A DNA stretch of 64,000 nucleotides from positions 312,001 to 376,000 of the forward strand of contig JAQGDQ010000121.1 of NCBI GenBank assembly GCA_030141605.1. The letters run 5' to 3'. A program made the position numbers and the translations under genes. This DNA comes from Tubiluchus corallicola (lineage: Eukaryota > Priapulida > Priapulimorpha > Priapulimorphida > Tubiluchidae). The notes under the pieces were generated by a model. It had not been told where the DNA came from, ran no database searches, and saw only the letters and a program-made list of their open reading frames with translations. This document shows positions 16,501 through 60,278 of the stretch, piece after piece. The first letter of the stretch is position 1; each line of letters begins with the position of its first letter.

Positions 16501-19500
16501 AAAATAGATTTGAGTACTCCAAAGAAACTTAATGACTTAATTCAAGTGAGAGTGCAGAACCACTCTAGAGCTAATCCACAGCCCCTTCTTACTGATGTCA
16601 TCCCTCTTGCTACATCTTCTGGAAGAGTACGTATATAAAGGAAACATCAAACTCTTAACCATGCCAAACTTTTACTGGGGATAATCAGTAATCTGCTCAC
16701 AGTATATGCCTCTGTTCTTATAGACTAGCTTTAAAGACTTCTCTAGTGGGTAATGAGTAATACACTTTGTCTTATTTTTACAAGAAAAAAATCATCGTCT
16801 ATGAAGTAGTGACACATTGATACTGATTTATTGATAGGCAATACAAAAAGCTTTAGTGTTACATTGATGTCACTGGCCTTCACTTATCAGTGAGATTTTG
16901 GTTTAAAATGTGTAAGTTAAGAAGTTTTGGTTCAAGACTATGATTCAGGTTCTGCATAATGTTTGCTCTGTATGTTGCCATCATTGATGCTCCAGCCTCA
17001 CTGACTCACCAGCACATTTTTCGATGTAACATTTAACAGGTATATCTAAAAGACTGAACTTGCCCTGCACATGTGAAATTCAAAACCAAATGACCAATAT
17101 AACTGCACTTAAACCTGCCCACTTAAAGTGTCCTACTTATCTAAGGCTGCACTTTTGTTAAAAATATGAGTTATTATTGGTTTTTTTTTGCTTTTTAGAT
17201 AATGCAGTATTAGAACAGGAACACAATGCTGTAGATGATAGCTATAGCATTGTTGAAAATAGGAATGCTACAAGTGGGGATAATACAACTGAAGAAACAA
17301 CACCAGATGAAAAAACAGAAACCACCAACTTTAGTCAAAGAACTGTTGCTACAAATAATACAAATGATACAGGTGATACTGATGATAGTCATGCAACCAG
17401 TGCTACAAGTGTAGACAATCGTAGTAGTGCTTCCAGTTCTCCAAGTGCAGTATTGCTATCTGATTATTCTGGAGCTGATAAGTCTTCTTCAACTGTAAAT
17501 TTAACAGAGACAAGCAGTGTTATAACACCAAATATAACACTTGAGAATTTACTAGAAAATCAATCAACCAGTGATCTACCTAAGACAGATCAAACTAAAC
17601 ATGGAATTGAAATAGAGAAATCAAAGATGATTGATGAATCTCTGCTTGCCAGAGATGAAGAAGGTGCATCTGAAATGGATGATGAAGAGACATCTGTTGC
17701 TACAATGATGACTGACTATAACAAAAACTTTACTGTTTTTAAAGGTTCATCGATTGATCCTCTGTCTACATTAGCAGTCCAGGAGGACAGAGACAGTGAT
17801 GAGTCAGACTCTGGTAGTCCCTTTGACGTTTTCTCGCCTAAACCAACATGGAATGATACCAACAAAATGTCTATACCAGATATTGAAGATGATGAAATTT
17901 TGCTTTATGGTAACATGACATTGTGGTTAAAACTTGATAGGAATTGCAGTTTCGATGAAAAAGATGCTGATGAGTTTATAGATGAACTTTTTAGTGCATT
18001 GTCTTCTCAAATCAATATTGACCCTGACAGATTGAGACTGGATTCAATGGACTGTGAAGATTTTACTGTTGGCCTCACACTTTTGAATATCTCAAAAGAG
18101 GAACTCTCCATATTAGAGGAAGATATTGCTAACATGACATTTCAGTTTAGAAATATAACATACACTATTACAGACATCAGTGCCAAGCCATTTGATGATA
18201 TAGATGATTATTTTTATTCTGATGATGCAAGGATGGAAACAATTTTCACGATTATTTATATCTGCATTGCATCTTTTTTGGGGACCATTATTATTTTAGG
18301 TTTGGCTGGGACAGTGTATTGTCTTACACATCGGAAAAGAAGACGTTCATTTAATCTCCAAGACACGGTAAGTTTTTGCCATCTGTGGCAAGTTTGTAGC
18401 ACGTTTCCATATTTACTGTTTGCTTTGTGTTTTTTGTCTGCACAAAAGTTTCTAGTTCTGTGTCCTAGGCATTTATGTAATGCATCAGTGTTGTTTGTCA
18501 GGCTTCTTGTGGCGATCAAGAGGTAAAATTCAAATGAAAATTAATTATTAATTTTAGGTTACTAGCAATATAGTACCAACTACCATCTTTGTGTAAAACA
18601 AATTTCTATTTTTATTTGAGCCTGAGTTGGACTTGCACAAATCTAGTAATGTTATGCATCACATCTGTGGAATATAAGTTTAATATTGCTTGGATTTTTT
18701 TACATTGTCAGCTAGTACTAAGATACTTTAAGAAAAACTGAAAATATAGAATTTTAACATATATTGTTTAATTACATAATTTTCTATACCATTCACTTAT
18801 TTTAAATTCCTGTTAGAATTTGTGTTTGCCTTCTCTGTAACTGCTAATTTACAGTGTCAAACTGTCAAGACCAGCTTTGTGCTTTGAAATCCACCTACAA
18901 TGCTTGTCTTGTTAAACCTACACATTTGCATGCTAAACTAATGAATATACTGAGAGGCACTTGCAGTTTAAGTGGTTTTTAGTATGAATGCATATGAGTC
19001 AGTATGTTTGATTAAAAATCAAAACCATAAAGTAATCAACACAGCAGATTTATCTGTGGAACCATCTAAACTGCAAACTATTCAAACCCTGATAATACTA
19101 ACATGTTTATGAGGACTATTCCATTTCTCTGTAAATAGAAATGGGCAGACAAAAAATACAGGGGCAGGAGACACAGGGGTGTCCAACTAACAGCAATGAC
19201 AAGGAAAACTGAGGTACCTTACTGTTGCACGTGTTTGTGATTTCAAGCCATTCATTACACTACCCTCTTGACTTTCTTTTGGTGTAGTTCAACTTGTTAA
19301 TGAGTTAACAGTCTTAGCATCAGTGCATTTAGTAAATTCAATTCAGGAATAGATAATGCATGACTCGCATCCCTGACATGACACATTTTTTCTTTGTTTC
19401 AGACAGATGCAGTGTGTAGTAACAAGTGTTTGTATGATTGTTGCATGGCTGCTTTAAATTAATAACTGGTTACCACATGTCTATATCATGCAAGAGTTCT

Positions 19501-20521
19501 GTTTTATTTTTATAGAGTGGCTTTGATATGAACTGATTATTACAGCTTGTCAACATGTCTGAAATGTCTGAGATCAAGCCTACTTGAGCAGCTTTTATTT
19601 TTGCTTTCTTGTTATTGTATTATCCTTTATGTTGTACAATATCTTTGCTGGCACTTAAGATACAATTTTGCTTTTTAATTTCAAGTATTGCTTTCTTTTT
19701 ATAAAACGACAACTTGGAATATTAAAACAATGAAAATATTATCATGTATATTTCATTTGCTATTACCGCTATTTGGTCATTAGTAAAATGCAAGTGTTTT
19801 GTGATTTTGTTTTTATTTTATAAGCATAAAGCCTACAGCATATGAAGACTAATTACAAAACCAGATTTAAAAATTAATTTTGTTTTTTAAGTCTGATGCA
19901 GGCTCTAGGCCTATTTAAACTTTTGGTTTCTAAAACACTTATACAGTACTATGCTGATATCACTGCAGTTGTAGTTGAAACATTTGAGTTTTTACATCAA
20001 ATTTTTTGCAAGATTCTTTTAACCAGAATTATTGCACTGTTTTGTAGATGATTAGTTATATGGTTGTTTTGAAAGGTTTTTGTGCGTAGTTTACAAATCA
20101 TTCAAGGATTTTGTTATAAGCATTGTCATGAGCTATTGTAAGAAAAATTAGTCTGTGTGTAACTGAAAAGTACATTTTTTTTATTTTTCAGCCTCACCTG
20201 AATTTTAATACTGAGGACTTTGTTCTGACGAAAATACCTCGTGTCGCTGTCATACCACGACAAAATGGTGCTGACGTCAATGGTAGTGGTCGTACTACAG
20301 AGGCTGCTGCAAACCATGCCAACTCAGCTCAAAGACTTGGACTACCTAAAAATGGCTGCATTATTGGAGTGGACAACCCAGCATACCAAGAAGATGCAAT
20401 GGAAATGTTGGATGCAATGGAAATGACAAATAAGAGCATGTACATTCCTGTTGCTGACTATGATATCGTAGCCAAGGCAACAGCAGAAAGTGAAGAGGAG
20501 GATGGTAAAGTCAGCCTATAG
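13586..20521 (+). CDS. Type I membrane protein, mucin-like ectodomain, NPxY tail
   Basis: Three exons join in phase: 13586-13664 (donor GTAAGT, phase 1), 17199-18367 (acceptor CTTTTTAG, donor GTAAGT, phase 0) and 20192-20521 (acceptor TTTTTCAG, stop TAG). The product is about 525 residues. Residues 1-25 form a signal peptide ending VNTQS. Residues 27-250 are rich in Ser, Thr, Asn and acidic residues, with many N-glycosylation sequons. Residues about 257-360 form a compact block that I read as SEA-like. A transmembrane helix spans about 374-400, followed by HRKRRR. The 120-residue tail contains DNPAY, a candidate NPxY site for PTB adaptors or endocytosis, and an acidic EEED near the end. I do not recognise the family; KIAA1549-like or mucin-like proteins have a similar plan. 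Two Met codons start the frame; I took the first. Additional small exons in the 3.5-kb and 1.8-kb introns cannot be excluded. Confidence 0.75.
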
Positions 20522-25008: not shown

Positions 25009-28000
25009 TTATAAATCGGTTTCATTTAAGCCCATTTCCTTTAGTCTCACGTGCAGCACATCAAATTTAGTCCTGTCTGTCGGAATCTGTTTCCAGCAAC
25101 CCAACATTGTGTTGTACACGTTCACTGGGCATGACATGGGTTTCATTAGTAAACCCCCTCTGGTGAGATAAACCACAACTTCACTGTCCGCTCGATAGCT
25201 ATATGGCTTCAGGCCGAAACTGAAGATTTCCCATATTAAGACACCAAATGACCAAATGTCGCTGTACTTGGTAAAAAGGTTACTTTTAATTGATTCAGTA
25301 GCCATCCATCGTATTGGCAGAGTTCTTCGTCCAACCTAAAGTTAAAAGCGTACGATTTTTAATATGTTTCTTGGCAGTCATGGTGGAAGAAATCGTGTTG
25401 TTGGAAGAATGTTGGAAGAAATCAATTTTTGGAACACAAAATTGTTGCAGTGATGTTCGAAATTCACAAAAGCGGAATGATGTAGTATCAACAAGTGCAA
25501 TTTCAACAAGAACAAAGGAACAACAATAGTAAAAAAATAGCAACAACAATTACAACAATAATTACGATTACAATGTAATTACAAATGGCAGCAACTGTAA
25601 CTGGGGAAATGGTGGCAAAACAACAACAACAACAGCAACCACAACAAAACATCAACAAAGCCACAGTGGTCTGCAAAGCATAAAACTAGAAGTTACGTCA
25701 ACGAGGACTTACGTCAACTCACCTTAACATAATCACCTGGGTAAAGTTCTTTTGCTATTCCCAAATCCGCTACTTTGACCCTCATGTCCATACCAATAAG
25801 ACAGTTTCTTGCAGCAAGATCTTTGTGAACATATCCCATTCTAGACAGATAGGCCATACCGGAAGCGATTTGTCCACCAATGTTGGTCATATCATTCACT
25901 GACAAAACGTAACTTATTCGTTTAGTCACATAACCAAACAACCCTTTCTTTAACGTCTTGGACATTGTGTCCCGTTTGGACTGATAGAAATTCTTGCGAG
26001 TCTTAGGGGCATTTGCAATAAGGAAGCTCTTTAAGTCGCCAAACTCTATAAACTCGTACACTATTGATGGTTTTTCGTCGTGGACAGCTCCTATGAGTTT
26101 ATGTACATTGGAATGTTCTGCATTTCCTATGCTGACAGCTTGTCTCTCATGTCTAGACCTGCTATGTGCTGCCATTTCCTGTGAAAACTCCTTCACCATG
26201 ACAACCTTTACTGGATCCTTCTCTGATGCACTGCTCAGCTCGGCTTGATACAGCTGTCCAAATCTACCACTGTACAAAAGACAAACATACTTCAAATTTT
26301 TCCTAGAAAGCTCTGTTAAAGGTCTAGTCCTTCGATGAAGACACTCACTTTCAATGGAACTGACAGACTGGGCACTGGTTAAAGAGATGCTGTCATCAGT
26401 GGTCAGTTGGGACAGACGACTAGTGGACAATCGACTGATTTGTAATTTTGTAGCTGGTTCTTCTACCTGCAACATAAATAAAAGTAGATTTGCTCATCAA
26501 TACTTAGGGGTAGATTGAACTATTTTTACTTTGCCTTGCCTTTTGTAGTCATAACGGACAAAAATGGCATCCCAGTATACCATTCTACCCAGAAAAGATT
26601 TTCTACATAATAAAATAATTATAATCGTAAGTTTACAACAGATGCGCAGAACAAATTATCATCCTCCAAAGGCGTTTTTAGTAAAACAAATTAAAGCATT
26701 ATAAAAAAAGGATGATCTTCTGTAAATGGTGCTAGTGGTGCAAAGGGACTCAGTACAGGGGATTCTTGACATTCAGTGGATCATTGAAAGTGCTTAGATT
26801 GTGGATGTTCGATTCATTATCCTTGTGCAATTTTCGCAGCCGTGTATAAAACACACTGCAAGAACTGACTTCTATTAGCTGATGATTCACTGAAGGAATT
26901 GACTCACAAAACTCGCTGAGATCTTACAATTTAGAATTTAGAAACTAATATACATAGAATTTTTAAACAAAGCTTTCTCTCATTAAAAACAAAAGCAGCA
27001 GACGTGTAAAAAATTTAAACTGTCTGAAGCTTTACTTACTTGCATATGTCCAGATCTGTGATTAAGCATACGTATAATGCAACACGTAATGACGGTGATG
27101 GAGAAGGCATAAACAAATGCCAGCACAATAGCAAAAGCTATTAACATATGAACTTTTTCTTTGTCTTCGGATAAAACCGCAAAAAACCTAGTGCAGTTGC
27201 CAGCATCAACTAAAAACAAAAACATGGATGAGTTTCATACTTAGCGCATTTAATTTGTGCTACGCAGTGTACTTACACGTGCCATACCTGGAAAGATTTT
27301 TGTAAGAACGTTTCCATGCATTGCCAAAATATCTCCAAACCAAACGCAATTTTATATATCCAGGCTCCGTCCCAGCTTCTTCACATTCCGTCTATTTCAA
27401 GCAAGTTTGGCTTTGAAATTCAATATTTGTGGGTGTGCTTCATTGAGAAAACATGTTTAATCATTTCATTTGTTTTAGAATCCACCTGACATGAATGATA
27501 ATGAAACAATCTGTGCTATAATGGCTTTCTTGTGAATTTCTGAATTTGGGAATTGTTTTGTTTTTCGAACGAGCTATAACAGCTAGAAAGATGACATTTT
27601 TAATCTTATTATTTTCTCAAAGCCTAACTATTGATTTTGCCAGTTTATGTTAATAAATGACTTTATGAAAAGGGCTTCAACGTAATCACTTACCTAAAGG
27701 TGAAAATGGAATTGCTTTACTTCTGGTCCCATTGCCAAATTCGTTAATGGGGGTGATAATAATGTGGTATGTTAAGAATGGATTCAAATGATCAAGATCA
27801 ATATTCAGCTGATACTGCTCAGTAAAAATCATTGTTGTGTCGTTGTCGCCAGCATCATAAGACACTATAAACCACGTTTTTGCAGCACTAGTAACATCAT
27901 TCAAAGACGTTTGAGAAAATACTGTTTCATAGTCCCACAACACAATCAGCGAATCACACCCAGGATCGATGACTGCACTGACATTAGTGGCCATCCAGTA

Positions 28001-29387
28001 TGGTGCTACAAAGAATGAAAATAAAAATTTGTATGAGTTTTATAGGATATCTATTATCACATCTATTATGACACAACATTATTAACTTTATTAAAATTAA
28101 TCTTGTTTTATGATTACTTATTGCAACCGAACAAACGCCGTGATTTGCATTGACAAGTAGCTACATACTGCTGACATCATGCTCATGTACTTCTTGGTTG
28201 AGCTCAATAATTTATTTTCCTTACCATCACTATCAAGCTTGGTAATTTATCATAAGAAGACATCGCCATAAGCCACTTCAACAAAACAAGAGGCTCATCT
28301 TGTGACTATTCACCCGAGTTTATTGAAAAAAACCTTAGAAGTGACAAATATTTAAATCTGGTTGAAGTTTAGAAATAATCCCACTCTACTAAACTAAAAA
28401 CGGCCTTTTTGGGCTTTCGTATAGCTTATTCAGGGCAGAAAGTTAATGAAAAACGTTTTGTTACCCTAATGTTGTGATCAGGACATTATGTAGATCGCCA
28501 AAAATTTTATCTATGTGCAGCACTTGAAATTTATTTTGCACTCTATACCAGTAATGGTGATTGTGATAGTTGGAGCTCCCTCCCCCCCCCCCCTCCCCCC
28601 CATGGCTTACTGGACTAATTTCTGGACAACCAACGATGCACGTATTTTTATACAGTTAATCTGTTAAACCAAACGGGTATTGATTAAATCAGCATTTCTG
28701 ATTTGTTAATGAAAGCAGTGGGACAGAGTTTTGGTAGATGCATGTTTACTGAATTGTATTCGTTCCTGCCTTATAGGTGTGAATACCTTAATGAGGACTG
28801 GAAGTGCAAAATGCGCTCCAATACATTTCAGCGCATTGCGCGTTTTTATTCCCATTAAAGGTGTTAACTGTGAGGAGTTGTACTTACGGCACAAACTAAA
28901 ATTTCCGTCACTGATAACTTCAACGATGAATTGTTGTTCTAAGTAGTTATCCAAGCACGTAAGCTGTGAGTAATCCACCATTAGTAAGTCCGAATAGATG
29001 AACAGCCACTCAGCCAGAGAAACTATTGCGCAGTTACATAACCAAGGGTTTCCTTCCAGAAGCCTGGACAACATTAAACATTTGACATTCTTGTGTGTAA
29101 ATGACGACACTCTAGATTAATTAACAGTACCTTAATAATATTATTCTTTTGTTGTACTATCATAGCATATTGATGCAGCATTACAACTTGTTGCTCGTGC
29201 CTCAAAATTTTGATACTCGCAAAACAACTATGAATTTAGATATTATTTGGATGAAAGGCGTATAAGGATGCGACTGCAATTAGTTGATCATTCCTAATTT
29301 ATATACATAAGATCTGAGCAGAAACTGCATGTTAATTTAACAAAATCATCTCGGCTTACCTAATGAACATACAGTCTTGTCCCGACC

Positions 29388-29425
<38 letters not shown>

Positions 29426-32400
29426 TTTAACCAAAGGCTCTGCGTGGGTGGGATGCTTTTAAAAAATCCACGTGGCTATATAAGTGTCGTAATTAAATAA
29501 GCTGCAACTTAAGCTAACTTATTAAAAACGGACTGCTTCAATTATTCTAGCCAATCGGTCAGTTTTATAGTTCCATGTTTCTGCTTTTATAAGCTTCAGC
29601 ACTATCACATCGAAACCAGTCAAGAACTAAACTATAGTAACCACTAGCCATGTAAATAAATTTATTTTCACTGTTCATTTATTTGACGTTTTTGGCTATA
29701 TTCAACAGACTACGCAGATCGTCCAATTACAATATTCGTATGACAATGTCTGTTATGCTTACAGTATTCGTAAAGTTTGCAACGGTAGACTATTCAGAAC
29801 GCTGAGCGACATTGAAGTTAAATCATTGTCCATTAGGTTCCTGAAAATATTTCAGCTACATTAATCTTTAATTTGCACGACAATGATGATGATGAAGATC
29901 GTGATCATGATCACAGTGATGACAATGATGATGATGACAATAACGATAACGATGGTCATAAATGTAATGGTTGTGGTGGTAATGATAATGATGATCAGAT
30001 GATGATAATGATGATGACGATAATAAAGAAAAAACACCGGCGTTAACAAACACATCAATAGTCACAATTATGAACGAAAACGAAGAAAATGAGAGAGCAA
30101 AAAAGAGAATGCAAACGTGAGTATCCAAAAAATCAATTTTATTTTGGTTAAATGTTTCAAAAGGCTCAAACAACTAAGGTGGCATTTACTTATTGCCAAA
30201 CGTGCCATGAACATGATTATGTGAAATGAGGTGGCTACGCAATGCTTAGCTTGGCTACTAAACAGATGACCGCTGAGAACAGAACACTGATCATGGATGC
30301 CTTCCATTTCTTTCGATCTGTAGTGAATATACATCAAAACATAACTAACCCACTTTTGCTTGTTCAATGTATTATCTCAGCAACGTATCCTTGAAAATTA
30401 GCAAGTTTGTAAGGTTCTGGTCCTGCACAGTCATCTATAATCATACTCATCACAGCCTTTATATTCATCATAAGCTAGTGTAGGCTGCAGCCTGGGACCC
30501 CTCAAGCTTTGGTAACATGTGGTAAAAGATCTGTTGTGATAAATATGTGCTAATTTGGTTTGCAATAAATAGTAATTAGTGGTATTTCTTAAAGAAAATT
30601 TATATTGATAAGCAAAAGATAGCTATTCTAGTTTATTTAAAGAATTTGCAACAAGTTTACTTCAAGCTATGTAAATGCCGCTAAAATATGTTGCGAGTAA
30701 AAAATATTAAAGAGGGGCCGGCGAGTTAGAAGGTGGCTCCATCTAAGGGGCCCCCATAATTTCATTAGTCTGGAAGCTCCAAAGAGCATAATCCGACTAT
30801 GACCCTTACGGATACCGGCTTGCGATGTGCCAAAATGCACACAAAACATCGCTAACACTGTAGTCATATAAAATTTCAAGAAAGTAAGAACAATAATAAC
30901 GATTGTAGCAGCAACAGTAGAAGCACAACAATAAGAATAATGACAAAATCTATAACACCACCAGCACTGTCAAAAATAACAGCGAGCAAGAACAGTAGTA
31001 ATAGCAACAATAACAGTAGTAATGACAACCGCAACAAACAGAGACATAACAAGGACAACCAGCAGCAGCTGCAAGTACAGCGTGTAGCAACTACAGCAAC
31101 AATAACTAACACGGATGACGGCTGCTGCCGCGGCAGCTGTGGCAAAACAAGGGCATTAGAATCACCAACAGCAACGACGAAGGCGGCGACGACAACAACA
31201 ACAACTACTACTACTACAGGATCAACAACAACTAGGTGAAAATTTGAAAAAATAAATAATAGTTCATGTCTGAAGAAAAATAAAGTTGAATTGGTTTAAT
31301 ACTTAGGTTTATTTAATTTTGACTATAAATATAACTTTAACCAATCTAAACTTTAAATAGCTTACAAATATTGCAATCTTAGAAGATCGTCAAAAATTCC
31401 ATCGGGCAACGAATTGAGTTTATTGTTCTGTAAATTTCTGAAAAACAAAAAAATTCTTTCATCATTTCTAAAACAAATGTTTAAATAATCGTTCATCATC
31501 ATTAGGTTAGCAGAATTATTTGAAAATTCGGTGCTAATAGTCTAGTCACACTAAAATGGTTCATTCACTGTATTGAACGGCCATACATGAACAAAATTCC
31601 TTCTGCCCTCCACGTTTCAAACGGATGCAGCAGTTTGGCAATAAACCGCTCCTCTTACAATACTCTAGCTTCATCCGTGCTGTTTAATGGGCTAGTATAA
31701 ATATTGATAGCTTCTCAGACTCCAGATGAAATGAACAGATTGTGAAAATAAATACAGGCGCATGCAGATTTAGAACAAAAATAGCTACAGTAGACTCGGT
31801 GAGGATAGTGGTAGTACTTAATACTGCTCAAACAAAACCTTGTGGCGATTTGTGTTTCTTAAATGCTACTATAATATTGCGCTCAAGCGTAGCTTCATGT
31901 ATGTGAAATATACGTTGATATCAAAGTCTCGAACGTTTAAAAAAATGGCAGCTGTAAGCGATTTATTTGCATTAAATTTCTCTGTACAAAATTTATTTTT
32001 AGCAAGAACCAAATCAAGCCAGGCTAGACGCCTTTAAGCACCCATTCCCTTTTAGAAGCAATTTATTTTAGAATTTCCTCAACGCGACGTTTTACACGAA
32101 GAAGCAATTTGAAAGCTGGTCGGTTTTCGCGAAATTCTGAAAGCTTAATTGCAATAATTATAAATGTCCTTGCCATGTTTTCATACAATTCTTACCCAAA
32201 GCTATTATTACTACAGAAACTTCTATCGTAGTCAAGCCTTTGAAAACGTGATGAAAAAGAGAAAAGTGATGAAAACTTGGTGTTGGTCAAACTAGCTTCG
32301 AGTGACGAAATTTCAATAACGATCTTTGTAGGGCAAACAATTTTGATGATTCTACTGTTCTAAATTTCTCAGTTATATATTATGCAAACATACAACACAT

Positions 32401-35400
32401 TCATTCACATGATATTGAATCTAACGAATCTTCAGTCTCTCAGGGGTTTTACGGCTTATTATTACCGTACCTTACACTAAACACTGACTGGAAACTTTAT
32501 CTGTTGTTGAACTGTTAAATAGTCAACATGCAGGAAATGAAATAACTTTCATTCTACATTAAATATTTATTTTAAACCGTACGTCTGACTTCCCAAATGC
32601 ATTCTGCAACTTAGTCCCTGGACGACTCTGACGTCGTAGATTTTGCGGGTTATTATTTTAAGTCTTTCAAATAAATGCGGATCTTAAAAAAGCAGCATTC
32701 CGAAATGGAATCGTTTACAGAGTGCAATGTAAACAATCATACTTGTTGACTAATGTCAACTGTTGACAGATACAACTGAGCCGAATGACTAGGTTAAATT
32801 CACCGGAATATATGGGGCTTAAACAAATTCCATACTGAAAGATATTTCAAGCTTACAAGACTGCAACGAGTGCCTAATTGTCTCATTAGAAAAAGTCTAC
32901 GGGCTAGGCAACTCTGCTAACTAAAACAACATCTCTAAACTCGAGAGTTTTTTTGAGAAATCGGAAATTTGTGTCAAGCATATGATGCACATCTGCGAAG
33001 TATAAACATTTTAAACCAGTACCACATCCGTTTAGCAAAAAATTTTGTGACTTCTTTTCTTAGCTGAATTAGTGAATAAATATAAGTACAAAAACGTATT
33101 TCACACAAAAAGGTATTAAAAGTAGTAAGAGCACAAAGAATACACATAACACGTAAAAACAAAATTTGCTTCTGTACCCTCCAAGGCTTATGAACTTAGT
33201 ACGTTACTAACTTGGCTCACTTGACACCTGCGACGCCATGGTTCAATTATCAGTCGACTTTAAAAATTTAACCGCCAATTCAAGGCTTCTCCCAACTTGG
33301 ACGACACTATGTGCTAACCCACAACTTAAAATATCATTTCTCGGCAAGAAACTCATGCAGAAAAGCTCATTATAATATTTTTTCAGTAAATAGTATTCAT
33401 TTTTTCCTGTTGTAACTCAGCATTTTGTAAATTTGGAGCAGCTTCTGTGCCTGGCTTCACTTGGCTTCTCTGATTGCTTGTTTTTGTTTAGAGACATCTT
33501 AGACAAGATCTCATCCTGTAAGATGCCGCTTGTTCTCTGCTAAGCAAATATTTACACAAAATCACCCGTCTGGAAACACTATATGAGAGAACTCTTTCAG
33601 TGACAGAAAACTTTGTAAACTTGCGGCACTACATATTTGCCATATTTGTGTCACAAACGGGTAGCGAGGCAGGCTGTATACATACTTAATGCATATAAAT
33701 GGCAATGTTATGGACAAATGGACAAGTAAATTTCACTTTACTTATCTTGTAATAGTGGTTTTACCTGACCAGGTATTCCACTGGACACAATACAGACACG
33801 TGACCGTAACGCAGCTTAGGTAAATTAATTTTTGATGCATAGTTTTGTACATCTAGAGCAAACTTTATACTTTTTGCTTACAGATGTTGCATCCTTTTAG
33901 CAGTTTTGCGAGCTAAATACACCATGGACGCGTCCTTATTCCAAAATCTGTTCAAGCTTTACACGTTTGACCCTATCAAGCATTTCATGTTAGTCTGTCG
34001 ATAATATCCAGACTTTACCTGTTCGCTGGATTTACTTATATTTAAACGGTTTAAAAGATAGACTGCAACCAATGTAACACAAGAACAGTATTTTCGCAGG
34101 TCCATATTTTTCGACGTATTCGCAAGTAATAATAAAAACTATAAAACACATCAAAGCTACTTAATAAATCATTTAGCTTTGCAAACTTAAAATACACCAC
34201 TACATATATAAAGACTTACAGATACGTCAAATTGTATAGTCCATCGAAAGCGCCACGTTCCAATGTGTCTATCTCATTGTTATCTAAAAAGCTAAATTAC
34301 AAAGCAAAATGGCGTTATTAAGGGATTTCAGGTGTGATGGGGTGATAATTTATCTGTACGTGATAAAAATAATAAAATTTCGCAGAATATAAAATAAGTA
34401 ATAAGCAGTAAATCCAATAGAAGACTTCAACAAATCAAATACAGAAACTCAGTGTACATCAAAAAAAGCCAATTAAAGATGTGACGAAGTTCCCTATTAT
34501 ATTTTCCCAATCAACATAGCTGTGTGGCAGTGAGTGCAAAAACAAAATTAATGTAAGACTAAATCAAAAATCTTGACTCATATTCTAATTTGGTTATTTT
34601 TGATTATGATCCTAATGACGGAAAAGTTGTTGTTGTTTCTCAACAGCGACAGTGACAGTGCCACCATCACTGCAATCTACATTCTATTTTTATCAATTAA
34701 CATAAAATTAAAAACTCGGTAAAGCGCAAAATACGGCGTGCAAAGCACAGTGATATAGCGAATGTAAAGATAAAATGTAAGACAATTCTCATCTACAAGC
34801 CTAGTTCACTTAAAAACGGAATTGTTTATGCTGCTATAGTCGCCGCTGCCATTACCGTTTCTGTCGCTTAGTATGAAGTAATATGCCAGGTTTCTTCAAA
34901 TCATCAGAAAAAAGTACTGGCGTGATTTTTGAGCACTTTATGTTTTACTATCTACAGCTTGTACAAAGTGTTAATTACAAATTGTTGTTAATTAAACCAT
35001 TGATTATCTCATTCGTGGCCTTCTCTTCCTCTGATTGCTACTTAACTGGCTTCTCCTCGTATGCAACGTAGGCTTACAATCTATACCAAAATTTCAGCAC
35101 TGTCAGGCTTGTACTCGTCGATAACGATGGATCAGCCTTTTAGCCTATACTATACTTGAGCATCTGCTGAGCATCCTCACCAACACGTGCTCTTACAGAT
35201 GTTTTCTCAACAATCTTTTCAGAGGAGAAAAATGAGTAGGACCCAATTCATTAACAAGGCGCAATTTTACCAGTAAACCGCTGATGTTCAGTGATTTAAC
35301 TGCAAGCCAACATTTGAAAATGTAGGCTAAGCAGTGCGTGTGGTCACGTTTTTTGCACGCATGGGCGCAAACATTGGCCGCAACGTAAATCAACATTATT

Positions 35401-38153
35401 TTGCTGAGATAATGTGTTAATAGATTTATTTAACTCGGTTTTAATACATAGTAGCGTTGGTAACAGAGACTTCATAGCGAGCTTAATAGGCGATGTTTTA
35501 CTGGTCCCTTCTAACTAGTATAAAACTTAAACTTGTGCAATAGCTTTTATGTGGAAAATACATTTCTATATGGCGTATTTTTAAAAAGAACCAGCTAAGC
35601 CGTAGAGATTGTGCAAGCAAATCACGACAGCGAAGCTTTATAAGTATGCGTATTCTAACAGCATTATAGCTTTAGTTTATTTTAAATACTAAACTTCCAC
35701 AGAAAGCAAATTATAAAAAAAACAAATGTTAAATTAACTTACAGTTGATTTAAACTTATTAGAGATTGAAAACTTTTCGTTTCGATCAGTTTTAATCCAT
35801 TTTTGCTCACATCTCTGAAAAATTGAACAGTTTTGATGTAAATTATAGTTTTAGAACTATAAATTTTGCCATAAGAGGACATTGCGTACAAACGATGCAA
35901 CATTTATGCTGAAAATGTGATTATATCTTGGAGCTCTATAGCCCAATACCATAGTTTATTTACATTCTTTACGTCAAGTATCAACTCATTTTTACGTAAA
36001 ATCTCACAATATTATTCACAAAAAATTTATTGCAAACGATAACGTTTTGAGAAAGCGCTTTCTGAAGAGAAATCTGATCTTCAGATCAATAATCTAAAAA
36101 ATTGTGAAATTTAAATGCAGAGATATAATTATAATAATGACAATTTAGAAAAAAAATTAGACAAGAGTTGCCTAAATATATGGAAATTGTTGTAAATATT
36201 TTTTATAAATGATATAGTGGGGTTTTACGTAAAAATAAAATTGGCTTCTCTTCTGTAGCATTCATTATACTTAGTCACAACGTACAGAGAACGAAGATCC
36301 GATAACTTCGACTTGGTAAAGTCTACTGTCTTAATTTCGGAGAGATTGCTGTCTTGAAATTTTCTGTAAAATTCAAAGTATTCACAGTATTTTACAAAAC
36401 AAAAAGCTGGTCTAAAGGGCAAAGCTTATTTAGGATGAACAATTTAAACTTCTAGGGTTCAAATATTATACAAAATATTTTTTACCTGGACTGTTAAAAT
36501 TGTTTAGTTACAATAACTATACACATTATCTAAGGTTTTTAACTACGTGGATCATAAAAAAGCCGTAAAGCATAAAACAAAGATATCAGTTATTTGTTTA
36601 ACATTTGTCATGACGCGAACCTGCGACCTATAAATTCTTGTTCAACGCCTCTACCGAACTATGACCATGTTTTAAGGAACTATAAATGAGTTGTGCTGGG
36701 CTCACTTCGATGTTAAAAGTGAATGAAAACTAGTGTAATATTTAGTAAAGTGTATTGTTCTAAAATATAGAAGCAGGAAGACGTGAGTCAAATTATTGTG
36801 GATAAATAGACCTGAAAAGGCATTTCATTGTTGCACTCAACTCCAATACTGTAGTAAATTTTAGAAAGATTTAAAAGAAAAGTAAGCGAAATTGCAAAAA
36901 AAAAATTTGACGGACTGAACACAATCGTCTAAATGACAGACTATCATCTAAATAAAGAAGCTAATGTTCAATTGAATACCTCTGTAAAGCGACAAAATTT
37001 TAGATTCAACGGATGCTATAAACAATTAGAAAGAATTGGCGACAAAAGGTTATTACCTACTGCTACAACCTAACTTCTTTTAAAAAAAATTGACGTTGAT
37101 ATAACGGGCTTTTACTATGTTTTCACTGGGTTTAATTAAGCAATCAACAAAGACTGGAAAATCTGAGCGCGAAGTGACTGAGCATCAAATGAGAAAAATT
37201 TGTTTTTACGTGAACTGACGCGTCGCAATCTGCTGACCAAGCTCACACTAATGGGTAGCATCTAAAACCAAACGAAAAGTCTGAGCAAAGTTTGCTGTTC
37301 AGTTTTCTTTTGAACTTCAGTTCAATAATGGAATGTCATTCTTGCACGTATTTATCCGTATTTATTTGACTCACCTCTTTTTTCAGTTTATAGGTAATCT
37401 ACTAATGCCAAACTTTATTAACAGCATTTTAGTAAATTTCTAATATTAAATTGAGCTTAATTTAAGCTTTGTTCCTGAGGGTATAGTTCCTTAGAACTAG
37501 TTAGGTTTTTAATTTTACATCAGACTCATTTTCTCTTCATATAATACCACTGAACCACACATTGTATAAGTAGCTTTAAGTTAAAAAATTCCAATAAAGA
37601 CAACATATGTTAAATTAAATGGAGGACATTATACTTTCTCACCACATTACTTCATTAATCGGGTTTTAACCGTATCCACATGTAAATTAAATTAACACAT
37701 AATTAAACAGTAATTCGAATTTTCTGTTATTGCTTTTCATCACGATAATTTTTTGTAAATCTCTTGATTCTGGCAACATACCTCTATTCCTCATTCTCCT
37801 GCTTGTCTGTTTAACGCACCACAAACATTTTACCTAAATTCAGTTTCTAGTCAATCACAAACTGAGAAAAGAAGCAAAATATACAGTGCCCTGTCACAAG
37901 AAATAATGTAAAGACTTGAATAAGAAATATAAATCAATAAAATAATTTAAAGATTTTATACATACAGATTTTCCGTATCATGTGGAACATTATCAGGCAC
38001 ATCATTCACTCCCAAGCAGATGACATCAACTATTTCATCTGTGATGACAATACATACTCTATGTACTTCAAGACTAGAAACATGTTTGCTCAATATATAT
38101 GCACAAGCTACAACAAACGGAAAATGAAACAAAGCAAATAACGAAAAGCCCAT
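25009..38153 (-). CDS. LRR-FN3 receptor tyrosine kinase, ROR/Trk-like
   Basis: Ten exons join in phase, 5' to 3' on the minus strand: 38153-37966, 36363-36286, 35814-35743, 34291-34220, 31437-31366, 29063-28888, 28005-27694, 27209-27040, 26466-25723 and 25335-25009. They give 736 residues. Order: signal peptide (1-22), LRR N-cap-like segment (about 30-60), four LRRs (63-160), Cys-rich LRR C-cap with NPWLCNC (161-219), one FN3 domain (about 219-322), transmembrane helix (344-370), Ser/Thr-rich juxtamembrane segment, kinase (about 437-730). Kinase landmarks: YSGRFG loop (first Gly lost), VMVK lysine 472, Glu 487, HKDLAARN (594-601), DLG in place of DFG (614-616), YPGDYV activation site, PIRWM and SDIWSFGV. 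HKD and DLG recall ROR1/2; the LRRs recall Trk. The tail after the kinase is only a few residues. The ligand is unknown. Small exons could have been missed. Confidence 0.88.
28578..28601. repeat. Poly-C tract in the kinase gene intron
   Basis: This is an almost pure C run broken by single T residues, within the intron between the LRR C-cap and FN3 exons. The coding (minus) strand is therefore G-rich and could form a quadruplex. Confidence 0.7.
29391..29420. repeat. (AT)15 microsatellite
   Basis: A pure AT dinucleotide run lies in an intron of the kinase gene. Confidence 0.9.
29879..30031. repeat. GAT/AAT-rich compound microsatellite
   Basis: Degenerate GATGAT, GATAAT and GATCAT units cover about 150 bp in an intron of the kinase gene. 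The open frames across it encode only low-complexity His/Ile/Val runs. Confidence 0.75.
30890..31240. repeat. ACA/GCA trinucleotide-rich region
   Basis: Degenerate ACA, GCA and ACT triplets keep frames open on both strands, giving poly-Thr/Asn or poly-Leu. The region sits in the intron between the last LRR exon (31366-31437) and the LRR C-cap exon. I see no coding evidence. Confidence 0.6.
36607..36666 (-). repeat. tRNA-like fragment, probable SINE head
   Basis: The minus strand contains an A-box-like TAGTTCGGTAGAGGC and a B-box-like GCAGGTTCGCGTC about 30 nt apart, and its ends (GGTCAT and ATGAC) can pair. At 60 nt it is shorter than a tRNA and lacks a proper D stem. A tRNA pseudogene or SINE remnant in the first intron of the kinase gene is more likely than a working tRNA. 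Confidence 0.35.
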
Positions 38154-39450
38154 CCTACTGCATGAGTATCAGCTGTCCGACGACGACATCAAACGAAACC
38201 TTCTGCCGATCTATCACCACACTCTCTGCAGCCGCCCTGGTAGTTCACAAAATAAAAATAATTCTTTGGCTGCTTTATTTTGTAATTAAATAATTTTTGC
38301 AAGTCAAAAAATATTCTTTATTCTGTTGATTACTAGTTAGTCAGTAATCTAAATTACTGCGTTATCAAAACTTATCTCGTACAAATATATCGTTTCAGCA
38401 ATGGGTTTCGTTCGACTGTGAACCATCATGAATTATAATACCTGAGCCTTTGATAAAATCAGTAGTAATCAAACAATGACGTTCCGATGACATTTGATCA
38501 TGAATATTTAATAAGCTGCTCAACCACGTCGCCCTCTTTCCAGAGCAATTTTGAAGAAGCTATTAATGATGAATATGAACGTTGCTGACATATGCGATTA
38601 TGAGATTAATCGTTGCATGTTGACACACCATTGAATTAACACAGGCACATTGAATTTAGCTGGAACGTCCTCAGAAGAAGCCACTGATACTTTGAAAAAA
38701 TTCTATTATTGAAACTTCTGCTCACGCGTTAGCTTCCCTTTTCACCAGAACCAAGCGCAAACTGGAGACGAGCAGTTGTGTATCTCCATAATCTCTTGCG
38801 TAGTCAACGTGCAATTCCCCATTATCCACAACATAAACACAGTGGTATGATCTACGGCCAATAGGCACAGCAGGAACAGCAGCGTTAGAAATATAATCCC
38901 AGCCGTCACGAAATGGGAAGAAAAGGAAAAAGTGTACAAGTCACGTGACTCATCACTGAGAAAACGGACCTTTCGTTTGATGTTGCTCTCGTTTGTTGTC
39001 ATCGCCGCAAAATTAAACAAACTTTCCAAAGATAATAATCAAAGGTTCCACCGGGATTGCTTCCACCAAATGTATACGCTGTGCGTACTGCTTCAAGAAG
39101 CCAAGCTTTCTTGATGACGTCATTTACCCAATTTGCTTAACTAGGATAGCATTCTTAATGCTTAAAAACTTAAAAAACAACAGAAAACTTACAACAGGAG
39201 CAAGTACAGCAGCAGATTTCAACTACCGCAACTAAGCCGTCATATCATATTCTTTCAGTTGAATCCACCATTATGAACTAGAGTGGATTACAGTAGTTTT
39301 ACAGCTGCTGACAGCGGGATGCTATTTTTAAGGCTGCTGTTTTCACTGCTCGAAGCAACAAATATCTAATTTAATTTTTAAAAAATTAGATTGTTTTGGT
39401 TTCACGGCGGCAACACGTGAAGAAAGAAAGAAAACAGGCTGGGCAATTAC

Positions 39451-39453
<3 letters not shown>
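38154..39453. other. Upstream flank of the kinase gene
   Basis: No supported coding sequence. The promoter of the kinase gene should lie here or beyond, possibly with a non-coding first exon. No core promoter element stands out. Confidence 0.35.

Positions 39454-39546
<93 letters not shown>
39454..39546. repeat. (ATT)31 microsatellite, possible LINE tail
   Basis: This is a pure ATT run of about 93 bp. On the minus strand it reads (AAT)n and lies about 550 bp beyond the last coding segment of the LINE at 40093-42903. It may therefore be that element's 3' tail, since several LINE clades end in short tandem repeats rather than poly(A). Confidence 0.8.
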
Positions 39547-39547
<1 letters not shown>

Positions 39548-40092
39548 TTTATTTTTTAAAACTATGTACAGAATACATTCCCTCTATTTGCAGGGATATG
39601 TTTGAAATTTCTAAAAGCATTTACAACGTGTTAAACCTATTCACATATATATAATTCAAATCTAACGCATCAGACACAATGAACGACAACGAGTATATAC
39701 AATAGACATAGTTACCGTAGTTACAAATTACAATTCAACACTACATACATACATAATAAAAGTATAATAATAATATAACGAACATATTTTAATACATAGT
39801 AACAAAAATTTACACGCATTATACACAATGGAAAACAGCGAGTACAATTATAATAAACATAATTACCAATTTTAATGCAAATTCACATAATCATAAATAA
39901 AAACAAAACAGCATATAGAAAACGCGACGAGAGTTGTAAAATTTCATCACCAACAGACTATTTACATGCAGGCGAAAGACGATGCGAATTCATCCGAGAT
40001 AAGATTTGCAAAAGTATTTACAGCATTATTATCCCGGCTAGAGAAAACATAGTCTGAATCTAACGTAGGCAGAGTGCTTTTGGCTTTGTTTA

Positions 40093-41702
40093 CTAATGTA
40101 CATTCAAATAACAAATGATGTACGGAGTGAGGCTTAATAAGCAGTTACATATGCTATTAAGAGCCTGCCAAATTTTGTACAAAAATTCCTTAAAATTTCC
40201 CTGCTTAAGTAATAAACTGAAAGCTAATTTTCTCCTGCTCAAAGAGACAGGGAATGGCATGGGCGTATTAAAAACTTTTATCGGGTTAATACGGGTGTTT
40301 GAACATTGGTATTTGTGGCGACATCTATTTGTCAACATATGCAACACATAATTGTCAATGTCAGTTTTCTTGTTTTGAAACGTAGGTGGTGGTAAAGATG
40401 CTATATCCATGTTAAGCCAGTTTATATCTTGACTGATTTTTAAAAATTCGCCTGTATAGGCTAGCAATTGACGCAAAAAGTGATTATGATTAAAATGAGG
40501 ATTTGCATGACTATTTATCAAGTGTAATTTGACAATATCACCATTTGAGGCAAATAGTACTTTCAGAATAAATTTCGCAGCTACACTTTTAAAGATTATA
40601 TCGAGGGGTGGCAGACCACAGATCAACTCTAATTTTTCACGAGAGTGGTGAAAATTACAGCCTTTTCGAGTTTTCATAACAACATATATAAGATCGTCAA
40701 AGAAGTTATGTTTGCGCACCATCCAAGCTGGAGCACCATACAAAATTATAGATAGTACAAGGGTTTTAAAGAGCAAGTACGGAGACTAAAATCTTTGCAG
40801 AGGGTACATTTTCGTTTGATTTGTAACCATCTATACCATGCTTTTTTCCTGACGTTATTGATTTGTAACTCAAAAGACAACTGCTTGTCTATAACAACAC
40901 CTAGCACCTTACTGCTGTGCACGTAATTAATGCTTTGATTCCCAATTTTCAAAATGACATTTTGGTTTTCCATGCCAAAAGGTAAAACCTCAGTTTTACC
41001 AGGTGAGCAGTTAATAACCTGTCTCCATTGTCTACACCAGATATGAAACCTATCACAGCACTGCTGTCCTAAGTTCACTACATCTGTATCTGTAGAACCC
41101 GATGCAAGGATTGTGCCGTCATCAGCAGTGTCAATGTCTGTTTAAACATATCTGACACATAGAAAATGAAAAGTAAAGGTGAGACAACCAAACCCAATCT
41201 TACAGTCACATTCACATGAAGATTAACTTCCAAGTTTAATACATACTTTTCTATTATAAAGCAAATATTTGAGTAACCCTAACATCTTTCCCTGGGTACC
41301 AGCAGAAAGAAGCCGAAAAACAAGACCGTCTAACCAGATACTATCGAGCGCACGTTGAAAATCGCAACAGATAGTCAGAGATGTGATTTTCTGTAATTGA
41401 TTTTCTTGTATACTGGAAATTAAACGCACCAAGTACCACCCGTAATTGTGATCAGACATGAATCCTTCTTGTTCTTTGTCGATAAGTCCATTTTCGAGCA
41501 TAAATTTTCTTAGACGGTTTGTAATTAGCCATTCTGCAAGTTTTCCAAAGTAAGATGATATTGTTATTGGCCTAAAACTTCCAGGATCAGTATAAGTAGC
41601 TTTATTTTCTTTTTTGATAAAGATCACTTTAAAGTGGCACCATACCCAGATACCTTGTGTCAAACATAGGTTACATAATGTAAAAAAACCGCTTTGGCCC
41701 AA
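40093..41702 (-). pseudogene. LINE reverse transcriptase, frameshifted
   Basis: The piece at 41702-41223 contains the RT motifs FRPITISSYFGKLAEWLI and CCDFQRALDSIW, the A motif that carries a catalytic Asp. Around 41125 the same strand encodes TADDG, the degenerate form of the YADD catalytic box. The pieces at 41078-40746 and 40776-40093 continue the thumb and C-terminal part in different frames. The element cannot produce one continuous enzyme. Confidence 0.85.
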
Positions 41703-42206
41703 AAACCAAGATGATTTAACGGATGAAAACCATCACAATCAACGCTTTTGCCAAATGTGGGAGTCTCTTTGATGGCTGAATTTAAATCATTCATGCAAAG
41801 TCAGAGTTAATTTCCTGGGGTTCATTGCTAAAGTCGTCAATACCAGTTATACTGTGTTCAACAAAAATGCGCCATCTGTCATCGAAATTAGCGTCGTGTA
41901 CATTTTCACCACTGAGAACTTTCATATAGAACTTGGCATAGATCGTTTGGATCAGTGTGAACAGACTCTTTATGAATCACCAATGCAATATCCGACTGGT
42001 TTGTATTAGTAAAAAAATTTTGTACGATTTCTAAAAACCTTGCGACACATTTAATTTAGCGCATTTTTCTTGTAACCATTTATCCGCTGCTAATTTGAGC
42101 TCTTGGTCAAAAATTGATTTTGCCTCGATATATAGGTTTTTATTTGTGAAGTTAGATATTTTCAGATACTCTTTTCTATAATGACGAACTGCATTTGATA
42201 ACATTG

Positions 42207-42890
42207 TTAGATTTTCCAGAATGGTTTTGAATGAGCACATATTACTTTTTTCAGTAATGTTTTTTCATTCGCTTGACCTATTAAGCTCTTGAATATATTC
42301 CAAACTACCCAAGGATCTCGCAAGAGGATAGCTGCGTTTATACGTGGAAAATGCATACGCATTTCCTCTTCCAAAACACCGCTCCAAGCATGCCAATTAC
42401 TATTTTTGAAATCAAACACAGTTCGCGCTCTGGGTGATCTATTGTGTCTGGGTGGAAGTGATATCACAGAGTTTACAACAAAATGACCCATTAGCGGTGC
42501 ACCAGAAAACAATTCTATATCTCTATCAACATTTTGCGTAGTTCTAAATGAGGTTAATTTATGTGTTAATAAAACAATGTCAATAATGCTTTTACCGTTT
42601 ACAGAGCAAAAAGTCTCAGTAAAAGGCGCTGTAGGTGTAATAGGGTAATTGCTGGACCAAATAAAATTATTTAAAAGACCGCCTAGTTCATTCGTCTTTA
42701 CATCCCACATGAAACTTCTTGCATTAAAATCACCCGTTGCAATTACACCATCTAAACCATGGGTTTCAACATACTGGCAAGCTTTAGCTATTGACTTTAA
42801 AACACTTTGCATATGGGAAGAGGCATTAGGCAGTACATATATTGAGGCAATGATCAATTTAAATTCAAAAAGTTTTACTAAAACCCACAC
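42207..42890 (-). pseudogene. LINE endonuclease, 5'-truncated
   Basis: A 227-residue frame contains GDFNARSFMWD, NELGGLL and SIIDIVLLT, which are signatures of the exonuclease-endonuclease-phosphatase fold of LINE endonucleases. The N-terminal catalytic motifs are missing because the element is truncated near 42900. A further open piece at 42240-42031 is the linker between endonuclease and RT. Confidence 0.85.
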
Positions 42891-43067
42891 AGAGTCGGTA
42901 TAGTAAAGCTTCCTAAAATATCGTTTTGACGTCCTAACCGGGGAAAGTGACTAGAGAAAATAGACGACCTGAAAACACTAAGTGATTCTTTCATTTAACA
43001 TTTTTAAGCTACCTGACGAACCGCCCGACTAAGTGACTGAACGTTGGTGACTTGCAGACGAAATCAG

Positions 43068-47187: not shown

Positions 47188-48030
47188 CTGAAACGCAAAT
47201 TATGTATTGTGAATTTGTGACCAATAATGAATATGCCTATTGTATATAAAAATTAAAACGTGATAGCCTCTAACAACATAACTAATCCATCGAATATTAG
47301 TATTATCAGTAAAACATCAGCTACCGTACACTTCCAGGAAATTTATCAAAAATCATTTGTCAGTATAAGCTGGTATAAGTGTCAGCGTCTACACTTAAAA
47401 TGAGTGCCAATGAAGTAAAATAGCATAATTACGATTACAAACTATAAAAACGTTTTCCACATAAACTAGAAAAGACAACAGAAGTAATTTAAACACTATA
47501 GTTAATTTGTCCACAACCGTTGAAATAATATTCATTGTCACGCCGACAGCAGTTGGAGCCTGTGACTATCTTTCTGGCTAACTGTCCGTCCGTCTGTTCA
47601 GTCCACATAACAAAATAAAAACTGATGAAGTTATAATTACCTAACTTATTAGTAAACAATTTTACCAAACATTCAGGACATGTATGGTAAAGGATAGTTT
47701 AAAAATGCGGTCCCTTTGTTGTAGGATTATTAATTACTTTCAGTTACTGCTATGAATTTTTGTCATCAGTTTGAGCTAAATACGGTAACACCTTAAATGA
47801 ATTTTCTTTGTGAAATCTGTTTCCCAAGCCATGTGTTTTTTCTTCTTTTTCTTATATGTTGATTATTTTCAATACGTTGATTATTTTCTTATTTTTGCTG
47901 TACTGGCACCATTCCCCCGCTGCAAAAATAGTACCAACAACAAATACTCCCACCTAATTGGGATAGATCCTCCTTGATCTATCCAATATCAATGTATAGT
48001 CACAGGGTTGAAAATGCCAACTCATACATT

Positions 48031-48427
<397 letters not shown>

Positions 48428-48429
48428 AA

Positions 48430-52688: not shown

Positions 52689-52785
<97 letters not shown>

Positions 52786-53010
52786 TTTCTCACTTCTTTA
52801 TTTATCCCACAATAAAAAAATTCTTTATTGCATGACTTTTTTAATCAAAACTTTTTTAATAGTAGGTTCACGTGCTATTTATTCGTTTACTTATTTATTT
52901 TACGCATTTAATTGTTGTTTGCTTAATTATCTGAATATTTGTTTGTTTTCTTATTTATTTATTCATACATTTATTTATTTGTTCATTTATTTATTTATTT
53001 ATTTATCTAT

Positions 53011-53101
<91 letters not shown>

Positions 53102-60263: not shown

Positions 60264-60278
60264 TTTACATCCAGCAAC
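60264..60278 (-). other. Spliced 5' leader of the LRR gene
   Basis: A minus-strand polypyrimidine tract ending TTTTCTTAG stops 15 nt before the LRR start codon. An upstream non-coding exon is therefore likely. Confidence 0.5.

What the first reader, a model, noticed from the sequence alone, without database searches (positions are those of the whole stretch)
25009..38153. Receptor tyrosine kinase joining LRRs and FN3 to a ROR/Trk-like kinase
Ten exons join in phase into a receptor of about 736 residues: signal peptide, LRR cap, four LRRs, LRR C-cap, one FN3 domain, transmembrane helix and tyrosine kinase. Known relatives differ: Trk receptors carry LRRs plus Ig domains, and ROR receptors carry Ig, Frizzled and Kringle domains. 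I recall no standard family with LRR plus FN3 in front of a ROR-like kinase. This could be a lineage-specific receptor made by domain shuffling, or a Trk/ROR-related branch lost in vertebrates.
Basis: partly seen in the sequence, partly recalled or inferred. Interest (0 to 1): 0.88.

Follow-up and report, generated by a model that had tools for sequence, protein, structure and literature searches.

The report
Shuffled LRR-FN3 receptor pseudokinase gene
Ten predicted exons that join in phase (host likely a mollusc or close relative) link leucine-rich repeats, a likely fibronectin-type domain and a predicted membrane helix to a tyrosine-kinase domain in which several ATP-binding and activation residues are changed, so the protein is predicted to be a receptor that signals largely without its own enzyme activity, in a combination that matched no receptor family we tested.

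Summary
On the minus strand, ten exons (38153 to 25009) join in phase with nine GT-AG introns into a 736-residue single-pass receptor: N-cap, four one-per-exon LRRs, a four-cysteine LRR C-cap, one FN3-like exon, TM helix, tyrosine-kinase domain. The FN3 call is weak but likely right (Pfam fn3 E 0.071 on the exon alone; the only three PDB matches, none significant, are Dscam, NCAM2 and EphA2). "ROR-like" is too specific: the kinase lies among Trk/ROR/MuSK/DDR/INSR/PTK7 on a very long branch, and none of six families is rejected as its sister; the amphioxus and coral LRR kinases found are (only the coral one after correction). New here: a degenerate catalytic core (Gly1 to Tyr, AxK Ala to Met, alphaC Glu to Gln, HKD, DLG, one activation-loop Tyr to Val, APE Pro to Thr), with Lys472, Asp596, Asn601 and Asp614 kept. 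Best reading: a lineage-specific pseudokinase-type co-receptor built by exon shuffling. No close orthologue was found in two protein searches. No transcript was available; the host is inferred (lophotrochozoan, likely mollusc).

The parts
37966..38153 (-). Exon 1 (aa 1-63): hydrophobic start (predicted signal peptide) and reduced LRR N-cap (Cys34, Cys46)
   Evidence: ATG at 38153, donor GTATGT, phase 2; hydropathy and cysteines
36286..36363 (-). Exon 2 (aa 63-89): LRR 1, 78 bp, phase 2-2
   Evidence: LRR_5 match 62-160
35743..35814 (-). Exon 3 (aa 89-113): LRR 2, 72 bp, phase 2-2
   Evidence: LRR_5 62-160
34220..34291 (-). Exon 4 (aa 113-137): LRR 3, 72 bp, phase 2-2
   Evidence: LRR_8 109-167, E 3.2e-16
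31366..31437 (-). Exon 5 (aa 137-161): LRR 4, 72 bp, phase 2-2
   Evidence: LRR_8 109-167
28888..29063 (-). Exon 6 (aa 161-220): LRR C-cap with Cys170/172/197/219
   Evidence: GNPWLCNC...C...C pattern; aligned to an LRRTM chain (107-219) and to the IGFALS C-cap (115-180); cysteines
27694..28005 (-). Exon 7 (aa 220-324): FN3-like domain in one phase 1-1 exon
   Evidence: Pfam fn3 E 0.071 on the exon alone; the 3 PDB matches at E up to 10 are Dscam, NCAM2, EphA2; not called in the whole-protein scan
27040..27209 (-). Exon 8 (aa 324-380): short stalk, predicted TM helix (about 344-370), start of juxtamembrane
   Evidence: hydropathy peak window 346-364
25723..26466 (-). Exon 9 (aa 381-628): Ser/Thr-rich juxtamembrane, kinase N-lobe, basic insert 530-567, catalytic loop HKD and DLG, activation loop YPGDYVK
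25009..25335 (-). Exon 10 (aa 629-736 + stop): rest of the kinase C-lobe; ends NETDL, a predicted class I PDZ ligand
   Evidence: PDZ consensus recalled

Best explanation
This predicted ten-exon gene encodes a single-pass receptor in which LRRs and a likely FN3 domain precede a tyrosine-kinase domain of the Trk/ROR/MuSK group with a degenerate catalytic core, so it likely works as a pseudokinase-type adhesion co-receptor rather than as a self-sufficient enzyme. Shown by sequence: ten in-phase exons, LRR modules in phase 2-2 exons, the FN3-like module in a phase 1-1 exon, one hydrophobic membrane segment, a kinase domain; loss of the first Gly-loop glycine (Tyr445), of the AxK alanine (Met470) and of the alphaC glutamate (Gln489), plus HKD, DLG, ATE for APE, and Val627 for one activation-loop tyrosine; retention of Lys472, Asp596, Asn601, Asp614. 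Inferred: the LRR/FN3 ectodomain binds a protein ligand or a neighbouring cell's surface protein and clusters the receptor; the kinase-fold domain binds ATP weakly or not at all and serves as an allosteric or docking platform; partner kinases would phosphorylate remaining tyrosines (Tyr622, Tyr626, insert Tyr541/559/566), and the C-terminal ETDL would dock a PDZ scaffold. Inferred origin: exon shuffling of symmetric-phase LRR and FN3 modules onto a Trk-group kinase gene, followed by fast change of the kinase.
For: Gene model. Domains. Kinase group: PDB phmmer MuSK 211, TrkC 191, ROR1 181, ROR2 174, IGF1R 166, ALK 162 bits; the 38-row and C-lobe trees keep it with Trk/ROR/MuSK/DDR/INSR rows. 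Catalytic core against 126 other distinct kinase domains (ROR1 orthologues are over-represented): Gly1 is G in 121, AxK Ala in 119, alphaC Glu in 121, the second twin tyrosine in 114, APE Pro in 110; the query departs at all five, and carries HKD (K in 35 of 126) and DLG (L in 38 of 126). Human receptor pseudokinases ROR1, ROR2, PTK7, RYK share HKD, altered Gly loops and a changed DFG (Table 2 of PMC13259870, passages). No NPxY. Symmetric phases 2-2 and 1-1. No Ig, Frizzled or Kringle exon found elsewhere in the window with the relatives tried.
Against: The ATP-anchoring Lys, catalytic Asp, catalytic-loop Asn and Mg-binding Asp are kept, so residual activity is possible; alphaC Gln is also seen in 5 of 126 other domains, whose activity we do not know; ROR1, ROR2, PTK7 and RYK keep the alphaC Glu. 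FN3 rests on weak scores, and the exon 7 model was useless. The kinase is assigned to no family. No transcript, expression or ligand data. The long branch means placement may be an artefact.
Confidence: 0.55

Rival explanations
1. It is a catalytically active ligand-gated receptor kinase, most likely a fast-evolving Trk paralogue in which the Ig domains were replaced by FN3: ligand binding dimerises it and it trans-phosphorylates Tyr622/Tyr626.
For: Lys472, Asp596, Asn601, Asp614 retained; exon layout of the ectodomain (signal peptide + N-cap in exon 1, LRRs over the next exons, C-cap in its own exon) matches that described for vertebrate, amphioxus and Daphnia Trk (PMC2772990 section 20); C-lobe-only tree joins it to Trk, but at 45/60; union with Trk is not rejected, p 0.119; Lymnaea Trk lacks the two IgC2 domains and has an IgC1 instead (PMC2772990, passages).
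Against: alphaC Glu, Gly1, AxK Ala and one twin tyrosine are lost together; no NPxY Shc site, and no tyrosine after Tyr702; the LRR region scores only 18.7 bits against a Trk (P0015); only 1 of 31 informative columns is Trk-specific in the query.
Confidence: 0.3
2. Two neighbouring genes (an LRR-FN3 protein and a kinase) have been joined by eye.
For: No transcripts were available; introns of 0.4-2.8 kb separate the parts; reading past the exon 7 donor meets a stop two codons on, so a secreted LRR-FN3 form is conceivable.
Against: All nine junctions are in phase with near-consensus sites; the top hydropathy windows other than the N-terminal one lie in exon 8, between FN3 and kinase; exons 8-10 alone would lack a start region and signal peptide.
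Confidence: 0.06
3. An ordinary ROR, MuSK or Trk orthologue with missed Ig/Frizzled/Kringle exons.
For: Kinase identity 33-39% to these families (30% for a partial TrkA row).
Against: Among the 16 database proteins used as tblastn queries, ROR proteins with Ig/Frizzled/Kringle and two Trk rows with Ig find in the window only the kinase exons and, for one, the separate LRR gene at 59-60 kb, at E up to 0.05; the query lies outside the ROR clade at 97/95. Of 11 rows without a family name in that tree, five fall into ROR, one into MuSK (100/100), one into Trk (100/97), one with the corals; three (P0032, P0037, P0103) are placed with no family, so a failure to place is not unique to the query.
Confidence: 0.05
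4. A decaying gene copy (pseudogene) that no longer makes a working receptor.
For: Degenerate kinase motifs and a very long branch.
Against: No stop or frameshift in 736 codons and near-consensus splice sites at all nine introns; LRR C-cap cysteines and many kinase-fold residues intact.
Confidence: 0.06

Closest known systems
Trk receptors (including Lymnaea LTrk and Daphnia Trk)
   Same: LRRs between N- and C-terminal cysteine caps, similar exon layout of that part, single TM, kinase of the same wider group (PMC2772990, section 20 and passages).
   Different: No Ig domain found; one FN3-like domain instead; no NPxY; no C-terminal tyrosine; degenerate catalytic core; kinase in two exons where Daphnia Trk spreads it over several; not placed with Trk.
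ROR receptors
   Same: Kinase similarity (ROR1 37% identity); HKD and DLG as in human ROR1/ROR2.
   Different: No Ig, Frizzled or Kringle domain found; outside the ROR clade (97/95); the two mollusc RORs aligned keep HRD, DFG and the twin tyrosines.
MuSK
   Same: Best single-domain PDB kinase match (211 bits; 39% identity); a long kinase insert at the same place; short tail after the kinase (MuSK's recalled).
   Different: LRR + FN3 in place of Ig/Frizzled; no NPxY; degenerate motifs; union with MuSK neither supported nor rejected (p 0.243).
ApLRRTK of Aplysia and LRR receptor kinases of amphioxus and coral (P0004, P0033, P0069, P0020)
   Same: LRR ectodomain on a receptor tyrosine kinase; coral P0020 also carries FN3 (with EGF).
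   Different: FGFR-type (ApLRRTK by its paper; P0020 by its source name) or other kinases; as sisters of this kinase the coral (p 0.00046) and two amphioxus ones (p 0.011, 0.014) are rejected, the amphioxus ones not after correction for nine tests. ApLRRTK itself was not in our set.
Human receptor pseudokinases ROR1, ROR2, PTK7, RYK (PMC13259870)
   Same: HKD, altered Gly loop, DFG changed, beta3 Lys kept (Table 2 there).
   Different: These four keep the alphaC Glu; this one has Gln (EphB6, HER3 and STYK1 have also lost it). Ectodomains unrelated.

Membership tests
Trk | LRRs flanked by cysteine caps in front of the membrane | tested here: met
   (N-cap reduced to two cysteines)
Trk | Ig domains between LRRs and membrane | tested here: not met
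   exon 7 matches fn3 weakly and has a single cysteine; no Ig match, no Ig exon found
Trk | Juxtamembrane NPxY and C-terminal tyrosine | tested here: not met
Trk | Kinase inside the Trk clade | tested here: inconclusive
   p 0.119; C-lobe 45/60
ROR | Frizzled and Kringle (often Ig) ectodomain | tested here: not met
ROR | Kinase inside the ROR clade | tested here: inconclusive
   outside bilaterian ROR at 97/95, but union not rejected, p 0.121; long branch
MuSK | Ig plus Frizzled ectodomain | tested here: not met
   no Ig or Frizzled match in the receptor or elsewhere by ROR proteins; a MuSK ectodomain was not itself used as query
MuSK | Kinase inside the MuSK clade | tested here: inconclusive
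   p 0.243
Receptor tyrosine pseudokinase | Essential catalytic residues substituted | tested here: inconclusive
   alphaC Glu and Gly1 substituted, also AxK Ala, HRD Arg, DFG Phe; beta3 Lys, HRD Asp, Asn and DFG Asp kept
Receptor tyrosine pseudokinase | No phosphotransferase activity | not testable with these tools
   needs an assay
LRR receptor kinases of amphioxus/coral (P0004, P0069, P0020) | Kinase domains are sisters | tested here: not met
   AU p 0.0113, 0.014, 0.00046 (uncorrected, nine unions tested; only the last survives correction; P0033 not tested)
Receptor tyrosine kinase (general) | Signal peptide, ectodomain, one TM helix, tyrosine-kinase domain in one chain | tested here: met
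   (chain predicted from DNA, no transcript; signal peptide and TM by hydropathy only)

The most novel reading that the evidence does not exclude
A founding member of a lineage-specific LRR-FN3 receptor pseudokinase family: symmetric-phase LRR (2-2) and FN3 (1-1) exons were shuffled onto a Trk/ROR/MuSK-group kinase, which then lost catalysis and became a co-receptor, an independent parallel to vertebrate ROR1/ROR2/PTK7 with a synapse-organiser-style ectodomain.
Probability: 0.4. Interest if true: 0.65.

Novelty: new variant of a known kind. Interest (0 to 1): 0.5.

Why it matters
The Trk/ROR/MuSK group built neurotrophin, Wnt and agrin receptors by putting different ectodomains on one kinase. 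A natural LRR-FN3 version with a decaying catalytic core would show that this swapping went on in a protostome lineage, with exon phases that permit it still visible, and that kinase loss in this group arose more than once. It gives a concrete, testable case of a receptor that would signal without its own kinase.

Tried and rejected

Rows dropped: a second MuSK chain (9snu) was left out of the trees as near-identical; 28 of the 120 rows went into the 38-row tree, with 9 PDB rows and the query; the 31-row tree left out three cnidarian-type rows, three LRR kinases and PTK7. A partial TrkA stretch of P0030 was used only.

Literature: 10 searches, all in PMC open-licence full text. Nothing in the titles and abstract starts listed shows an LRR+FN3 receptor on a Trk/ROR/MuSK-group kinase; some listings were capped and subscription papers are not in that library. 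Seen: PMC4200351 abstract and section 5; PMC2772990 section 20 and passages; PMC13259870, PMC8662651, PMC4812194, PMC4883820, PMC6993872 passages only; all others search listing only.

Full report
WHAT IS THERE. Joined, they give an open frame of 736 codons with nine GT-AG introns of 387-2782 bp. Five of nine donors are GTAAGT, of 17 such hexamers on that strand in the whole window. Junction phases are 2 after exons 1-5, 1 after exons 6 and 7, 0 after exons 8 and 9: the four LRR exons are symmetric 2-2 modules of 78, 72, 72 and 72 bp and exon 7 is a symmetric 1-1 module. That is what exon shuffling needs; that it happened is an inference. No transcript was available. Reading past the exon 7 donor meets a stop two codons on, so a secreted LRR-FN3 form cannot be excluded.

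DOMAINS. Pfam finds the tyrosine-kinase domain (E 5.6e-67, 443-725) and LRRs (LRR_8 E 3.2e-16). The LRR C-cap has its four cysteines (170, 172, 197, 219), the N-cap only two (34, 46), and the strongest hydropathy window is 346-364. FN3 is the weakest call: absent from the whole-protein scan at E up to 0.1, E 0.071 on exon 7 alone and 0.13 with flanks. Because FN3 was named before the test, the single-family chance is about 3e-6 (0.071/24,736, my arithmetic). The only three PDB matches at E up to 10 are Dscam, NCAM2 and EphA2 chains (0.4, 1.2, 1.3), none significant alone; that the matched parts are FN3 is recalled. The conserved tryptophan and the LxPxxxYxIxxxxxNxxGxG stretch fit FN3 (motif recalled). 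A single-sequence model gave pLDDT 37 and says nothing.

WHICH KINASE. By phmmer in PDB the kinase scores 211 bits to MuSK, 191 to TrkC, 181 to ROR1, 174 to ROR2, 166 to IGF1R, 162 to ALK; a two-copy EGFR construct tops the list at 233 by adding its domains. A careful ML tree of 38 rows puts it beside RORs at 82/79, outside the bilaterian ROR clade (97/95), on an end branch of 2.51 against a median of 0.22; two coral rows and one unnamed row with a long common stem meet it there, and the program warns of this. Without those, the LRR kinases and PTK7 it falls into a polytomy; with the C-lobe alone it goes to Trk at 45/60. Nine unions were tested: ROR p 0.121, MuSK 0.243, Trk 0.119, PTK7 0.179, INSR 0.093, DDR1 0.201 are not rejected; amphioxus LRR-TK 0.014, amphioxus LRR-sushi-TK 0.011 and coral LRR-EGF-FN3-TK 0.00046 are, only the last after correction for nine tests. 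As a check of the method, of 11 rows without a family name five fall into ROR (97/95), one into MuSK (100/100), one into Trk (100/97) and one with the corals; three (P0032, P0037, P0103) find no family, so failing to be placed is not unique to the query. The honest statement is: wider Trk/ROR/MuSK/DDR/INSR/PTK7 group, family unassigned.

RELATIVES. A search of 5.8 billion proteins scored the 7983 candidates sharing most words and listed 120 of 1677 matches; in those 120 the best local alignment covers at most 56% of the receptor. Within them, the query's LRR region matches 7 (six of which also carry a kinase), and its FN3 and TM-juxtamembrane regions match none at E up to 10. A second search with residues 205-450 found none at E up to 1 among 798 candidates. 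Both searches need shared exact words, so remote orthologues could be missed. LRR receptor kinases do exist elsewhere: P0020 (Stylophora; LRR, EGF, FN3), P0004, P0033, P0069 (Branchiostoma), P0015 (Trk type), and Aplysia ApLRRTK (PMC4200351, abstract and section 5).

HOST. So the window is probably lophotrochozoan, likely molluscan, but not from a close kin of a species in that list. The own genome could not be searched.

LIKELY WORKING. Ectodomain: LRR plus FN3 as in neuronal adhesion proteins such as FLRT and LRFN (recalled). Cytoplasmic part: Ser/Thr-rich juxtamembrane without NPxY, a basic insert with three tyrosines in the kinase, a tail ending ETDL, a class I PDZ ligand by the recalled consensus. 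I commit to a pseudokinase-type adhesion co-receptor (0.55), with an active Trk-derived receptor as the main rival (0.3). The Trk layout described for Daphnia, amphioxus and vertebrates (signal peptide and N-cysteines in exon 1, LRRs in the next three exons, C-cysteines in the next; PMC2772990) is the same here with one more LRR exon; this is the best hint to a Trk origin of the ectodomain, though LRR genes often have one LRR per exon (recalled).

NOVELTY. A new variant of a known kind. The ectodomain swap has precedents (LTrk, Trkl, ApLRRTK); this combination, and a degenerate kinase in it, turned up in none of our searches.

Noticed in passing
window 59058-60278 (-): Single-exon 406-codon frame for a secreted or membrane-anchored LRR protein (LRR_8 E 6.9e-45, weak LRRNT, hydrophobic C-terminus), same strand as the receptor; weakly similar to the receptor's LRRs (27% over 89 aa).
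   Followed up: partly
window 27682-27694 (-): Reading through the exon 7 donor gives a stop after two codons: a possible secreted LRR-FN3 isoform by intron retention.
   Followed up: no
window 40093-42950 (-): Relic of a non-LTR retrotransposon just upstream of the receptor: endonuclease (42207-42950) and reverse-transcriptase (41223-41732) pieces in separate frames.
   Followed up: partly
window 17162-18526 and 20132-20521 (+): Acidic Ser/Thr-rich ectodomain-like frame with a TM-like segment, then a cytoplasmic-looking frame with NPAY; no Pfam family above cut-off.
   Followed up: no
window 2545-3054 (+): TXNDC9-like exon (thioredoxin E 4.6e-8), used to infer the host.
   Followed up: yes
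window 54820-55443 (+): SAP-domain-like frame (E 0.0024, below cut-off) of a possible nuclear protein.
   Followed up: no
window about 39440-39560, 47950-48550, 52700-53100, 61800-62400: Long simple repeats (ATT, GA, TCTG-like, ATTC-like) seen as artificial frames in the ORF lists.
   Followed up: no
database protein P0030: Penguin 'TrkA' record has an insulin-receptor-type kinase at its N-terminus and a second, Trk kinase at its C-terminus: probably a gene-model fusion.
   Followed up: partly
database protein P0113 (Porites); P0075 and P0116 cluster with it: Coral 'ROR1'-named protein carries Gln at the alphaC Glu, HGD for HRD and DVA for DFG (P0113 seen; the other two not inspected): another possible pseudokinase branch near ROR.
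   Followed up: no
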